A stretch of DNA of 28,545 bases. Source: a virus. Both the position numbers and the translations under genes were made by a program. Shown one piece after another: positions 2,271 through 11,610 of this stretch (the first letter of the stretch is position 1; the number at the start of each line of letters is the position of its first letter). A model generated the notes under the pieces. It saw only the letters and a program-made list of their open reading frames with translations, did not search any database and was not told the DNA's origin. The stretch lies in the IMG/VR virus record IMGVR_UViG_3300030333_003194, positions 1 through 28,545 of that record. One strand, 5' to 3'.

Positions 2271-2302
2271 TCACTACATAAAAAAAGGGGGGCAGTATCA
2301 CG

Positions 2303-2326
2303 TTTTTGGTAATTATTTTATTTCTT
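2303..2326 (+). terminator. T-rich termination region after the first gene block
   Basis: The 210 nt between 2270 and 2482 hold no well-supported gene. They begin with A- and G-runs, then an oligo-T (TTTTT at 2303-2307) followed by further T-rich sequence to 2326. Archaeal polymerases commonly stop at such non-template T tracts without a hairpin, so this is a plausible end for the upstream unit. There is no strong stem-loop. Confidence 0.35.
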
Positions 2327-2449
2327 CAATAGTGTTTTAGATAAATAAGAGAGGTCTATTCTAAAATGTCTTTGAAAGAATTAAAAATATTAGAAACAAT
2401 AGAGCAGTATAACGGTTTTTTATTTCTGGGATTGCGTGGTCATTACAAA

Positions 2450-2482
2450 ATTATTATATGCGGAATGCACTAGGGGATATTA
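2450..2482 (+). promoter_or_regulatory. archaeal promoter, TATATGCGGA class, leaderless start at 2482
   Basis: TATATGCGGA spans 2455-2464 and TAGGGG begins 16 nt after its first T (2471). The ATG at 2482 lies about 25 nt from the TATA centre, the usual distance to the transcription start in archaea, so the mRNA should be leaderless. The ATG inside the TATA box at 2458 is in frame with the gene but would lie upstream of the transcript. Confidence 0.75.
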
Positions 2483-3024
2483 TGAACATATTTGTATTAC
2501 ACGAGCATCCGGTGACGAGTGCCAAGATGTATTGTGACAAGCACGTTCCCAAGATGGTTGTAGAAATGCTACAACAATTGGGTTCTGCCGTCATACGACA
2601 CGGTGCTACTCCCGAAGTGATGCCATTGACTAAGAAAGGAACGCCACTCAAGGGCGGTTATCACAATCACCCTTGCACCCTCTGGGTAGGCGAGACACGA
2701 GACAATTTCTATTGGGCTTGCGACCATGCGCTTGCGCTATGCACCGAGTATACCAAGCGCTTCGGTAAGACGCACTTCTGCGAGCGAGGCATTGAGAAGT
2801 TATTCTGCATGGCCGAGTTAATACCAGAAGGCGACCTAACGCCCTTCGCTCTCGCTATGCCCGATGAGCATAGGCCCGAAGCCTGCCACATCAAAAGCGG
2901 TTATCTATTTCATGCTACAGGCACTACGGCAGTAGAAGCATACAGGCGCTACTACCACAGTAAGGAGTTTGCCAAGTGGGAGAAGGGCACAGATGCGCCC
3001 GAATGGTGGATGGGTGCAGTATGA
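2482..3024 (+). CDS. conserved marine-phage protein of unknown function, 180 aa
   Basis: The start at 2482 (MNIFVLHEHP) rather than 2458 follows from the promoter geometry. The sequence has the signature of a family I know from many marine phages: MNIFVLxExP, then CDKHVPKMVVEMLQQ (about residues 18-32), HNHPCTLWVGE (61-71), and a helix with DHALALCTEYTKRFGKTH (81-98). The conserved Cys/His residues suggest a metal site or nuclease-like chemistry, but no activity has been established to my knowledge. Its presence with archaeal expression signals suggests exchange between bacterial and archaeal marine viruses. It opens the operon running to about 7879. Confidence 0.75.
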   Translation: MNIFVLHEHPVTSAKMYCDKHVPKMVVEMLQQLGSAVIRHGATPEVMPLTKKGTPLKGGYHNHPCTLWVGETRDNFYWACDHALALCTEYTKRFGKTHFCERGIEKLFCMAELIPEGDLTPFALAMPDEHRPEACHIKSGYLFHATGTTAVEAYRRYYHSKEFAKWEKGTDAPEWWMGAV

Positions 3025-7885: not shown

Positions 7886-7918
7886 TATTTAATTACTCTT
7901 AAAAACCGGCTCTCCATG
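7886..7918 (+). promoter_or_regulatory. archaeal TATA box with leaderless GTG start
   Basis: TATTTAATTA (7886-7895) lies in the only gap of its neighbourhood and its centre is about 25-28 nt from the GTG at 7918, so transcription would begin at or just before the start codon. It lacks the GCGGA and TAG elements of the five main promoters, so it may belong to a different expression class. Confidence 0.5.
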
Positions 7919-8316
7919 TGAGCGCCAACAATAGACGTATCAGACGGGTCATAGTCGAGTTGCTTTTTGAGTATGGCCCCCTCACAAAAGAGGGTATGGC
8001 CGCTTTACTCAGTAAAGTAAAGTCTGTGCGAACCGTTCCGAGTCCTCACAGTTTGAGTGCTTTAATGTCTAAGAATTCCCAGATTGTTGTGACGGGTAAA
8101 GAAGTGGTAGAGAATGCCGTAGGTGCTAAGGCAACACATTTGGTTTATGATATAAACAGAGAAATAATAAAGTCTAAAGATGATATAACTTACACTCGTT
8201 CTTTAACGGTTATGAGTCCGGCCGAGAAAAGGAAGGCCCAGAAATGTAAGTGTGGTAAGACCAGAGTTTTCCGTGAAAACGAAGATGTTTGTCTGCATTG
8301 TATTAGGCAATCTTAA
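7918..8316 (+). CDS. winged-helix protein with C-terminal zinc ribbon (family member 4), 132 aa
   Basis: Starts at GTG 7918, positioned by the TATA box upstream; the overlapping ATG at 7916 runs straight into a stop. Residues 1-75 follow the family layout: basic start (SANNRRIRR), helix VIVELLFEYGPLT, helix KEGMAALLSKV, then SPHSLSALMSKNSQIVV as recognition helix and wing. Residues 105-132 add a ribbon with CKCGKTR and CLHCIRQS, giving four Cys. A DNA-binding regulator with a metal-stabilised tail is the likeliest reading. It is the first gene of its unit. Confidence 0.65.
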   Translation: MSANNRRIRRVIVELLFEYGPLTKEGMAALLSKVKSVRTVPSPHSLSALMSKNSQIVVTGKEVVENAVGAKATHLVYDINREIIKSKDDITYTRSLTVMSPAEKRKAQKCKCGKTRVFRENEDVCLHCIRQS

Positions 8317-8554: not shown

Positions 8555-8579
8555 ATCACTAGGGGCATAGGTTCGGACA
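8550..8579 (+). promoter_or_regulatory. possible leaderless promoter before 8579
   Basis: ATAAAT at 8551-8556 is centred 25 nt from the ATG at 8579, and TAGGGG (8560-8565) plus a second TAGG (8568-8571) lie between them, as in the main promoters. The TATA match is weaker and overlaps the stop of the upstream gene. Confidence 0.4.
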
Positions 8580-8941
8580 TGACAGAGGATATTAGGTTGA
8601 TGTTGGATATGATTGAAGGCGTGATAAGGCAGGGTGCAGACCCATACTTGACGGACATTCTAACACAAGACAATATCCATGAAATTGAGATGGTAAAGCG
8701 CTCGATTTATTTCTGTTCTGATATTGATAAGCCAGACCCAGAGAGTGAAATAGACTTCATGGTTCACGACACTCTTTCCGGTGCAGAAGGTTGGTCTGTG
8801 GAATATATTAGGGGTTTAATGATGGGTATTCTTATGTCGTTAGACGGACAAACTAGAGATGTGTTTGCTAACAAAGAGGAAATGGCGATACTTTACAGAC
8901 TATTATCTTCTATGATTATAGAACGCATCATTGACGAATAG
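8579..8941 (+). CDS. acidic helical protein, 120 aa
   Basis: Starts at ATG 8579, which fits a leaderless start. The protein is acidic and almost entirely helical (EDIRLMLDMIEGVIRQG, VEYIRGLMMGILMSL, YRLLSSMIIERIIDE), with no Cys pair or charged catalytic cluster that I recognise. Low charge density of Lys/Arg makes DNA binding unlikely; a protein-binding or DNA-mimic role is conceivable but unsupported. It stands alone between two promoters. Confidence 0.55.
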   Translation: MTEDIRLMLDMIEGVIRQGADPYLTDILTQDNIHEIEMVKRSIYFCSDIDKPDPESEIDFMVHDTLSGAEGWSVEYIRGLMMGILMSLDGQTRDVFANKEEMAILYRLLSSMIIERIIDE

Positions 8942-8959: not shown

Positions 8960-8995
8960 GCAATACTTATATGCGGAAGCGTGTAGTAGTGTTTG
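8960..8995 (+). promoter_or_regulatory. promoter of the structured leader (GCAATACTTATATGCGGAA class)
   Basis: GCAATACTTATATGCGGAA (8960-8978) is identical over 19 nt to the promoter at 10354. TAGTAG starts 16 nt after the first T of TATATG. No ATG lies at the expected transcription start (about 8995), so unlike the 2455, 13310 and 17714 promoters this one should make a transcript with a long 5' leader or an independent RNA. Confidence 0.7.
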
Positions 8996-9123
8996 TAGGA
9001 GTGTGGTAGTAGAGTTAAAACAAGCGTGGGTTTTTCTTCTTTTTCCCCACCTAAACAAATCGTGGTTGTTCGTTGTTCTTTTGCATACCGACTCTACCCC
9101 ACTCCTACACCGGAAATGATAAC
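8994..9123 (+). ncRNA. structured 5' leader or small RNA closed by a long stem
   Basis: No convincing ORF occupies 8942-9123. Bases 8994-9002 pair perfectly with 9101-9109; the helix continues with G9003-C9100, one T/C mismatch, two G-C pairs, a three-base bulge (9007-9009), and 9010-9015 paired with 9091-9096, about 18 pairs in total. The 5' arm begins where the upstream promoter should start transcription. Inside are GTGGG/CCCAC (9026-9030 with 9046-9050) around a T-rich loop, and a second GTGG (9062-9065) that could compete for the same CCAC. It may be a regulatory 5' UTR of the winged-helix/clamp-loader unit (ATG at 9124) or a separate RNA. Confidence 0.55.
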
Positions 9124-9456
9124 ATGGCATTCAATACTCAAAGCCCTAACACTAGGAAAGACAAGAGCAGAATCGGCAAGTGTAAGACCAACGGCAATAT
9201 CATGCGGGCGGTGGCTAGATACCTAAAGGAAAATGGCCCATCACCTGCGGTTTCTATCTGGGATGGTGCTACATTAGTAAATGGGAAGCCTATGAGAAAC
9301 AGTAGAACCGCACCAACAAAGGCTACTATGATTAACGTTATCCGTATGAGAGGCGATGACTTCTACAAGGTAGACACCACTAGGGTTCAAGGAAAGAATG
9401 CTAAATACGATACTATCCTATGGATGGTAAAAGACGATTCGGAGTTATTACAATGA
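9124..9456 (+). CDS. small winged-helix protein (family member 5), 110 aa
   Basis: The ATG at 9124 is the first start after the stem-closed leader; frames opening earlier at 9026 or 9073 run through the paired region and use poor starts. The basic N-terminus (RKDKSRIGKCKTNG) leads to a helix (NIMRAVARYLKENGPSP), a variable insert, then TAPTKATMINVIRMRGDDF in the recognition-helix position and a wing (YDTILWMVKDD). The layout matches the proteins at 855, 3194, 6103 and 7918. If autoregulatory, the leader would be an obvious target. Its stop overlaps the clamp-loader start (ATGA). Confidence 0.6.
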   Translation: MAFNTQSPNTRKDKSRIGKCKTNGNIMRAVARYLKENGPSPAVSIWDGATLVNGKPMRNSRTAPTKATMINVIRMRGDDFYKVDTTRVQGKNAKYDTILWMVKDDSELLQ

Positions 9457-10385
9457 GTCAAGTATGGGCTATGAAACATCGCCCTACTTTAGAGGGTATA
9501 GTAGGACAAGACCATATTCTAAATGCTTTGACTATACCTGTGTCTGTTGCGAAGAACCACAGTCCCGAACACCAACCCTTCCCCCACATGATATTCTATA
9601 GCCCACAGGCAGGGACAGGGAAGACAAGTTTGGCCCATGCCCTAGCAAACGAAATAGATTACACTCTCCATATCTTTAATGCGAGCAGTAAGAAAACAAG
9701 GGGTATAGAATTCGTAGAGGAAGAATTACTACCCATGTCTAGGACAGGGAACACCAAGCAGATATTCCTATTAGATGAGGCAGACCAATTGACTCCCGCC
9801 GCACAGTCGGCATTGAAGGGGGTGATTGAGAATGCACACGGCATATTCATCCTTACTTGTAATGACTTGAGTAAGGTTTCTTCGTGGTTGAAGTCTCGTT
9901 GCATGGTTCACACTTTTAATCCTGTATCAGACAAACTTATGATGCAAAGGCTAGTAGAAATAGTCGGTAAAGAAGGGGTGGAGATAACCGAGGAACAATT
10001 GGGCTTAATCATTAGAGCGAATGAAGGTGACTTGCGCTCGGCTATCAATTGTCTACAAGCCTATCATGGTGCGAAGAATGGTGACGCATTTGTTCGTGGT
10101 TTGGTTGATGAGGGTCTTGATTGTGATTTATTCCTTACGCTTTGTTTTAGAGACAAGGAATTTGTATCAGCCCTAAAGTTATTGGAAGGTAGAAACTCAA
10201 TAAGGAGTATTTTCTATCATGGCATGGACTCTAACGGTTCTATAGCCTCAAAAAACATTCTCATAGATGCGGCCGTGACCGCAGAGAGAGACTACATTTC
10301 TGGCGTTGAGCCAAGCATCATACTCGCTAATTTCACCCGTATGTGTTGTGAAGGCAATACTTATATGCGGAATGGAATAGCGTGA
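9453..10385 (+). CDS. RFC small-subunit-like clamp loader ATPase, 310 aa
   Basis: Start by ATGA overlap at 9453. Walker A is SPQAGTGKT (50-58), NASSKKTRGI (76-85) matches the NASDxRGI box of RFC, Walker B is LLDEAD (106-111), ILTCNDLSKV fits sensor 1, and KSRC (147-150) is the SRC arginine finger of clamp loaders. GDLRSAINCLQ is the sensor 2 region. It should load a sliding clamp (candidate at 14298) at primer ends. I see no RFC large subunit, so the virus may use a homomer or the host's large subunit. Its last codons carry the next promoter, so the C-terminal residues NTYMRNGIA are encoded by TATA-box DNA. Confidence 0.88.
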   Translation: MSQVWAMKHRPTLEGIVGQDHILNALTIPVSVAKNHSPEHQPFPHMIFYSPQAGTGKTSLAHALANEIDYTLHIFNASSKKTRGIEFVEEELLPMSRTGNTKQIFLLDEADQLTPAAQSALKGVIENAHGIFILTCNDLSKVSSWLKSRCMVHTFNPVSDKLMMQRLVEIVGKEGVEITEEQLGLIIRANEGDLRSAINCLQAYHGAKNGDAFVRGLVDEGLDCDLFLTLCFRDKEFVSALKLLEGRNSIRSIFYHGMDSNGSIASKNILIDAAVTAERDYISGVEPSIILANFTRMCCEGNTYMRNGIA

Positions 10386-10407: not shown

Positions 10408-11610
10408 ATGATTGATGATAAGATAATTGAGAGAACGGCAAAGACGTTGAATGTAGATGCTTCGGCATTGAAGGCAAAGGCTGATGAAGTCTATGCTAAT
10501 CAAGGGGCTACATGGAGAGCCGCCGGTAAGAGTGAGGCTGACGCCTACGCTCTTTCCCTAAAGGTTGCGGGTTCGCAGGTAAGAAATGAGAATGCGGCAT
10601 TGGCTCGCTCTGGCGCCTCTAAATTAGAGGGTATGTTTATTTCTGTGCCCCGCACTAAGGAGTGGGGAAAACTCACCTACAACAAGATGAAGAACCAATT
10701 GCTATCAGCATCGGAAGAGATGCGGCAACAGTTTGTTGATAGGGGTGACGTTGTTCTACTAGAGGACAACGGAGACGGGTCTTATACTCGCTACGCTCGT
10801 GAGGACTTCTTTGGTTCTGACACTACTACTGTGACAGACCTACCACGCCATAGCATGATGCTAGATGGCACGACTCACTTCTACTGCGTATGGGATAAGA
10901 ACAACGCAACATTCCCTAACGGTAATGCTAACTTCAAGTTTGGAAACCCACGCCCACAGGATGACAGGGCACGAGATTCCCTATTCTTGGGTAAGGTAGC
11001 AGGCGAGACTGACTACAGGCTAATTACTGTGGTCGGACAAGGTAAGGCGGCTGACGTTCAATGGCCCACTTTCACACCCGGTTCTATCGCCGCAGGCGTA
11101 GGCCAGAACGGTGACAAGGCTTACCTAAAGGCAACAATGCTAGACTTCAATGCTGACGCTTCATTGGCTGATATGTTCCCATCTGCCCCCTACATGGATG
11201 GTGGTAAGGGACTACTTTCATCAGAGAAGATACCCATTGATGTTCTCAAGGGACTAGATGACTTGCCCGCATACGGTAAGGCTAACGAAGGCAATTGGAA
11301 CGCTATCTGCGCCCTACCTGCTGAGATTATCCACATAGACCCAAGAGACAACGGGGCTTCGACTCTAATCTGCGCTGACATGAACCCTGCATCAACCGCA
11401 CCTGTGGTTGAGGTTTACTGTCCGGCTGAGAGAGACATTGACTTCGGTGTAGGTTCAAGCATCCTACTTGTAGGAAGCACTTGGGCTGACAAGATGACCG
11501 GCGAACAGAGGATGGGCGTCTCCGGTTGGTGGGTCTTTAACGAGATACCAACGGTCACACCAGAGGCTATGGACACCACACAGGCTTCCCTAGACGATGG
11601 TGAATGGTGA
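10408..11610 (+). CDS. candidate ssDNA-binding protein (OB-fold/RPA-like), 400 aa, tentative
   Basis: The helical N-terminal 75 residues (IIERTAKTLNVDASALKAKA, then ALSLKVAGSQVRNE) precede a long beta-rich body. Segments such as DYRLITVVGQGKAADVQW and PVVEVYCPAERDIDFGVG with ILLVGSTW resemble OB-fold strands, and the C-terminus is an acidic tail ending in an aromatic residue (TTQASLDDGEW), as in many single-strand-binding proteins. Its own promoter with a leader and good RBS suggests high expression, as expected for an SSB. It lies between the clamp loader and chaperonins. A capsid or other structural protein is the main alternative; I find no decisive motif. Confidence 0.4.
   Translation: MIDDKIIERTAKTLNVDASALKAKADEVYANQGATWRAAGKSEADAYALSLKVAGSQVRNENAALARSGASKLEGMFISVPRTKEWGKLTYNKMKNQLLSASEEMRQQFVDRGDVVLLEDNGDGSYTRYAREDFFGSDTTTVTDLPRHSMMLDGTTHFYCVWDKNNATFPNGNANFKFGNPRPQDDRARDSLFLGKVAGETDYRLITVVGQGKAADVQWPTFTPGSIAAGVGQNGDKAYLKATMLDFNADASLADMFPSAPYMDGGKGLLSSEKIPIDVLKGLDDLPAYGKANEGNWNAICALPAEIIHIDPRDNGASTLICADMNPASTAPVVEVYCPAERDIDFGVGSSILLVGSTWADKMTGEQRMGVSGWWVFNEIPTVTPEAMDTTQASLDDGEW

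What the first reader, a model, noticed from the sequence alone, without database searches (positions are those of the whole stretch)
8994..9109. Stem-closed RNA leader starting at the predicted transcription start
An 18-pair helix joins 8994-9015 to 9091-9109 across about 75 nt, with one mismatch and one three-base bulge. It lies in the only sizeable non-coding gap inside this part of the operons, and its 5' arm starts where the 8968 promoter should begin transcription. I match it to no riboswitch, tRNA or ribozyme: there is no T-arm motif and no hammerhead CTGATGA. It may be a new regulatory leader for the winged-helix/clamp-loader unit or an independent viral RNA.
Basis: partly seen in the sequence, partly recalled or inferred. 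Interest (0 to 1): 0.8.

Follow-up and report, generated by a model that had tools for sequence, protein, structure and literature searches.

The report
Stem-closed small RNA of marine archaeal viruses
A virus of uncultured ocean archaea carries a short RNA gene whose two ends pair into a conserved stem; relatives carry the same kind of RNA, sometimes several in a row, and no catalogue that was searched lists it.

Summary
The helix 8994-9016/9090-9109 is the strongest short-range inverted repeat in the window, and its 5' end lies 28 nt behind a TATA box. In this virus group the commonest offset of a leaderless ATG behind that box is 29, so the helix starts at the predicted transcription start. 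At the same place in three relatives (L011, L015, L038) a helix starts at exactly the same offset, with different bases but kept pairing: 6 of 13 pairs change on both sides. No conserved protein reads through it, and Rfam has no match.

The 'leader for the clamp-loader unit' reading is weaker. Some relatives lack the RNA and keep promoter and gene. Others have a longer RNA (type A) in the slot. The same architecture (about 12-bp terminal helix, 5' G, 3' ACC after the last pair, variable interior) recurs elsewhere, in arrays of up to four behind a DUF932 gene.

Best reading: a member of an unreported group of independent structured small RNAs of Magrovirales-like viruses, with a constant terminal helix and a variable interior. 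What it does is not shown. The 12-bp helix plus ACC resembles a tRNA minihelix, but the T-loop is not conserved and ARAGORN finds no tRNA.

The parts
8966..8974 (+). TATA-like archaeal promoter element CTTATATGC
   Evidence: same box at 10360, 13308 and 17712 before genes; offset statistics
8994..9016 (+). 5' arm of the closing helix; RNA 5' end predicted at 8994/8995
8995..9006 (+). outer 12 pairs, 5' side (partner 9097-9108), the part shared with relatives
   Evidence: covariation
9023..9052 (+). predicted inner hairpin with U-rich loop
   Evidence: single-sequence fold only
9090..9109 (+). 3' arm of the closing helix
9109..9111 (+). ACC directly after the G8995-C9108 pair, shared by most relatives (A9109 can also pair with T8994)
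9124..9456 (+). downstream gene, 110 aa, no known family; found with the short RNA in L011, L015 and L038
9453..10385 (+). clamp-loader gene
8579..8941 (+). upstream 120-aa gene, no known family; its relatives flank the slot in most loci that hold an RNA there

Best explanation
The segment is the gene of a structured non-coding RNA of about 115 nt. Its own archaeal promoter sets the 5' end at the foot of the terminal helix. It belongs to a group of stem-closed small RNAs of Magrovirales-like viruses of marine archaea. Most are closed by a helix of about 12 bp that begins with G and leaves ACC after the last pair, with a variable interior. Most likely it acts in trans: the helix brings the two ends together, protects them and serves as a processing or protein-binding handle, and the variable interior carries the specific function. 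Shown: the helix, its compensatory changes, the promoter offset, the shared ends, the recurrence at a second genomic site in arrays, and the absence of a conserved protein. Inferred: that it is released as a separate RNA, that something binds the helix, and that the interior is the effector.
For: Helix and stability. Same offset from the TATA box in the window, L011, L015 and L038, and one more in L002; helices at +28 are enriched over control offsets, 5 of 60 against 3 of 480. Compensatory changes on four orthologous sites and on 11 RNAs of both sites (partly circular). Empty or differently filled slot in relatives. Arrays of up to four stem-closed RNAs behind a DUF932 gene, with the same ends. 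No conserved frame. No Rfam match.
Against: No expression data. At the clamp-loader slot the RNA is followed within about 10-20 nt by a gene, so it may simply be that gene's 5' leader. Only four short-type orthologues are held. The interiors of the short RNAs are too different to align across the two sites, so common descent of all stem-closed RNAs is not shown. The bases between the arms have no tested covariation.
Confidence: 0.62

Rival explanations
1. Cis-acting leader: the helix sits in the 5' untranslated region and controls translation or stability of the downstream 110-aa and clamp-loader genes, as an autoregulatory or ligand-binding element.
For: It lies between the transcription start and the first gene, which starts 12 nt behind the ACC; in L011 and L002 too a gene follows at once. 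The four short-type RNAs all go with the 110-aa gene.
Against: L003 and L012 keep promoter and clamp loader without it; a different RNA fills the slot in others; the same build occurs in arrays at another site with different genes downstream.
Confidence: 0.22
2. tRNA-minihelix mimic: the 12-bp helix with 5' G and 3' ACC copies the acceptor-T-stem of a tRNA, so that host RNase P, RNase Z or the CCA-adding enzyme release or modify the RNA, or so that it decoys a tRNA-binding host factor. This is a special case of the best explanation.
For: Helix length near 12 bp and ACC in most of 18 RNAs; UUNRA directly above the helix in the window and several array members; GTTC in 12 of 15 loops, P 0.005; tandem arrays with short spacers.
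Against: UUNRA is missing in L011, L015 and L038; ARAGORN finds no tRNA; no Rfam match; the window helix runs on past 12 bp.
Confidence: 0.13
3. DNA element: the inverted repeat acts as double-stranded DNA or a cruciform, for example as a protein-binding site at the promoter, and the RNA is incidental.
For: Any inverted repeat can do this; covariation alone does not tell RNA from DNA.
Confidence: 0.05
4. Chance inverted repeat in a gap, or part of a small protein-coding gene.
For: Open frames of 62, 66 and 75 codons cross it, and one of 84 codons crosses it in L015.
Against: Frames are not conserved and lengths differ without regard to three; the 62-codon frame starts upstream of the transcription start; the helix recurs with compensatory changes at the same offset.
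Confidence: 0.03

Closest known systems
tRNA minihelix / viral tRNA-like structures
   Same: About 12 bp of continuous helix, 5' G, ACC after the last pair
   Different: No cloverleaf, no anticodon arm, T-loop motif not conserved, long variable insert, CCA not encoded; no tRNA detected
cis-regulatory leaders and riboswitches
   Same: Position between promoter and first gene at the clamp-loader slot
   Different: No match to any Rfam family; replaced or absent in relatives; arrays at another site
Structured non-coding RNAs of phages and metagenomes, such as GOLLD and ROOL (named in PMC12286853)
   Same: Virus- or mobile-element-borne, structured, not coding
   Different: Far smaller, simple terminal helix, in arrays; no Rfam match

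Membership tests
tRNA or tRNA-like structure | cloverleaf or anticodon arm found by a tRNA finder | tested here: not met
   ARAGORN: 0 genes in window and relatives
tRNA or tRNA-like structure | 12-bp acceptor-plus-T helix with a one-base discriminator and CC(A) at the 3' end | tested here: inconclusive
   about 12 bp and ACC in most members; the true 3' end is unknown
tRNA or tRNA-like structure | conserved T-loop (UUNRA) above the helix | tested here: not met
   present in the window and several array RNAs, absent in L011, L015, L038
any of 4227 Rfam families, riboswitches and ribozymes included | match to the covariance model | tested here: not met
cis-regulatory leader | kept in front of the same gene in relatives | tested here: not met
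   absent in L003 and L012 and replaced by type A in others for the clamp loader; but kept with the 110-aa gene in the four short-type genomes
cis-regulatory leader | changes expression of the downstream gene | not testable with these tools
   needs a reporter assay
independent structured RNA gene | kept pairing with compensatory changes | tested here: met
independent structured RNA gene | discrete transcript | not testable with these tools
   no transcript data at hand
Magrovirales-like virus (host of the element) | PolB, clamp loader and chaperonin genes in a marine virus contig | tested here: met
   gene set described for Aoguangviridae in PMC10768690

The most novel reading that the evidence does not exclude
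Magrovirales-like viruses carry a family of tRNA-minihelix-like small RNAs with exchangeable inner domains, cut out of tandem arrays by host tRNA-processing enzymes and used in trans on host targets.
Probability: 0.13. Interest if true: 0.88.

Novelty: new variant of a known kind. Interest (0 to 1): 0.62.

Why it matters
Magroviruses are widespread in the surface ocean and known only from sequence. I found no report of structured RNA genes in them in the papers searched. A group of small RNAs with a shared end structure, in tandem arrays and at a defined promoter, gives exact predicted ends to test in transcript data, and adds a layer of virus biology that protein annotation misses.

Tried and rejected
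Known RNA families: none by Rfam at gathering or permissive thresholds. tRNA or tmRNA: none. Terminator: no hairpin plus T-run at the site. Coding frame: rejected. Antisense to the virus's own sequence: the longest complementary run of the loop is 13 nt, P 0.07 against shuffles, not convincing. Exact pattern for the 5' arm in IMG/VR: no hit. A covariance model of the arms alone (R1) recovered three of the four sites it was built from, missed the window itself, and gave otherwise only chance-level hits. Species genomes: no exact hit for the type A core and no relative of the clamp loader. Annotated phage records: no DNA match to the RNA or to the array, no match to the neighbouring proteins. 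The TCGT motif in loops (9 of 15) does not survive correction for all 4-mers.

Full report
What the window is. The window is a virus record of 28,545 bases. [quoted passage not shown] This gene set is described for Aoguangviridae of the order Magrovirales, viruses associated with marine archaea (PMC10768690). Clamp-loader relatives were found in IMG/VR contigs; among annotated phages all matches are below 60% identity.

The observation. The helix TGTAGGAGTGTGGTAGTAGAGTT (8994-9016) / GACTCTACCCCACTCCTACA (9090-9109) is there, with 19-20 pairs. It is the only near-perfect inverted repeat of its size with a short spacer in the window. The folded segment is more stable than shuffles, z = -2.6. 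An inner hairpin at 9023-9052 is predicted but was not tested by comparison.

Start of transcription. The TATA-like box CTTATATGC starts at 8966. The same box occurs at 10360, 13308 and 17712, each shortly before a gene. At 33 such sites in related genomes and the window, the commonest distance to an ATG that opens a reading frame is 29 (9 sites), with 30 and 31 next. These look like leaderless genes, so transcription should start at about offset 28-29. The helix begins at offset 28 in the window, L011, L015 and L038, and at 29 in L002. Over 60 TATA sites, strong helices (score 27 or more) begin at +28 in five cases, against three in all over eight control offsets.

Comparison at the same slot. 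I read the DNA between the upstream 120-aa gene and the clamp loader in the relatives. L011, L015 and L038 have a short RNA of the same build: TGTAGTAGGGTGG/CCACCCTGCTACA, TGTAGGGGGCG/CGCCTCCTACA and TGTAGGAGGCGGT/ACCGCCTTCTACA. On the four pairs of arms 98.1% of cells pair, six of 13 pairs have changes on both sides, and 0-1 of 500 shuffles match this; sliding the partner destroys it. One bulged C of L015 was removed by hand for this count. L011 and L015 were picked by reading the slot, L038 by a helix scan. Fold z-scores of the three are -2.9, -1.5 and -5.9. No reading frame is conserved across the four, and their lengths (118, 70, 59 and 81 nt) do not keep a frame.

Other fillings of the slot. 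L001, L002 and L004 to L010 have a longer RNA in the slot, here called type A, with the core GGCGAG-hairpin-CC(N)AAACC ... GTCGGATAAGCC and variants of it. In L002, whose clamp loader is 70% identical to the window's, the outer stem resembles the window's (TGTAAGGGTGTGG / CCACCCCTTACACC) while the interior is type A. L003 and L012 have a promoter and the clamp loader but no RNA; in L012 a leftover TTTGTGAGCGA directly before the gene, as in L008, looks like the scar of a deletion.

A second site. Searches for type A led to other places. The richest is the gap behind a DUF932 gene (PF06067). There L204 holds four stem-closed RNAs in a row (the last one type A), L208 and L209 three, L205, L207 and L211 two, and L195 one short and one type A. 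The contigs of L002 and L006 carry RNAs at both sites (L210 and L211). The type A core is 99% identical over 71 nt between the contigs of L014 and L082, whose clamp loaders are each only about 49% identical to the window's.

Shared build. Of 18 RNAs folded one by one, most start with G, close with a helix of about 12 bp and leave ACC after the last pair; L210 r2 does not. The members were first collected with ACC as a filter, but a scan of both sites without that filter shows ACC after most of the same helices. Loops share GTTC in 12 of 15 cases, P 0.005 over all 4-mers. For 11 RNAs from both sites, 11 of 12 pairs vary on both sides; this count is partly circular, because the array RNAs were found by their helices, and bulged bases were cut out by hand.

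What it most likely is. The evidence favours an independent structured RNA gene over an obligatory leader: it can be absent or replaced while promoter and clamp loader stay, and the same build occurs elsewhere. The constant part is the end structure, the variable part is the interior. I take the helix as a protective, processing or protein-binding handle and the interior as the effector; this step is inference. The 12-bp helix with ACC recalls a tRNA minihelix, and some members carry UUNRA above the helix as a T-loop would, but the motif is missing in L011, L015 and L038 and no tRNA is detected. I keep it as a lead, not as a family.

Novelty. Rfam has no match in the window or in the relatives. 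Paper searches on magroviruses, Poseidoniales and structured RNAs showed no report of such RNAs; only open-licence papers are held, and only three were opened. Virus-borne structured RNAs are a known kind; this is a new group within it.

Limits. There are no expression data, and both ends are inferred. Few independent members are known at the slot. Common descent of the short RNAs, type A and the array RNAs is suggested by shared ends and places but not shown.

Noticed in passing
window 2271-2457 (core 2286-2428): A second conserved non-coding element: AU-rich, about 145 nt, with a central inverted repeat (CTTCAATAGTGTTTTAGA ... TCTAAAATGTCTTTGAAAG) and GCAGTA(NN)ACG repeated directly at both ends. 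Found in nearly every magrovirus genome fetched, one to three places each. Not more stable than shuffles as RNA; it may be a DNA element such as an origin.
   Followed up: partly
L014 7136-7431, L099 972-1084, L100 5-121, L129 around 10680-10800, L133 around 1430-1560: Type A RNA: strongly conserved core GGCGAG-hairpin-CC(N)AAACC...GTCGGATAAGCC with variable inserts; two tandem copies in L014; hairpin stem with compensatory changes; core 99% identical between distant contigs; no Rfam match.
   Followed up: partly
L208 2722-2922, L209 2713-2851, also L002, L005, L014: A second module GGTCGGAGAGAGAT(A/T)A recurs beside or inside type A RNAs, as if inner domains are exchanged.
   Followed up: no
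window 10360, 13308, 17712: Further copies of the promoter box YTTATATGCGGA on the + strand, with leaderless-looking starts 29-48 nt behind.
   Followed up: partly
window 7918-8316: A 132-aa gene without a Pfam or PHROG match, with a CxC...CxxC end, is present in almost every magrovirus locus fetched (31-81% identity); a useful marker gene.
   Followed up: no
window 2482-3024: A gene with a pyrimidine-dimer glycosylase match (PF03013); its relatives lie behind the RNA arrays in several genomes.
   Followed up: no
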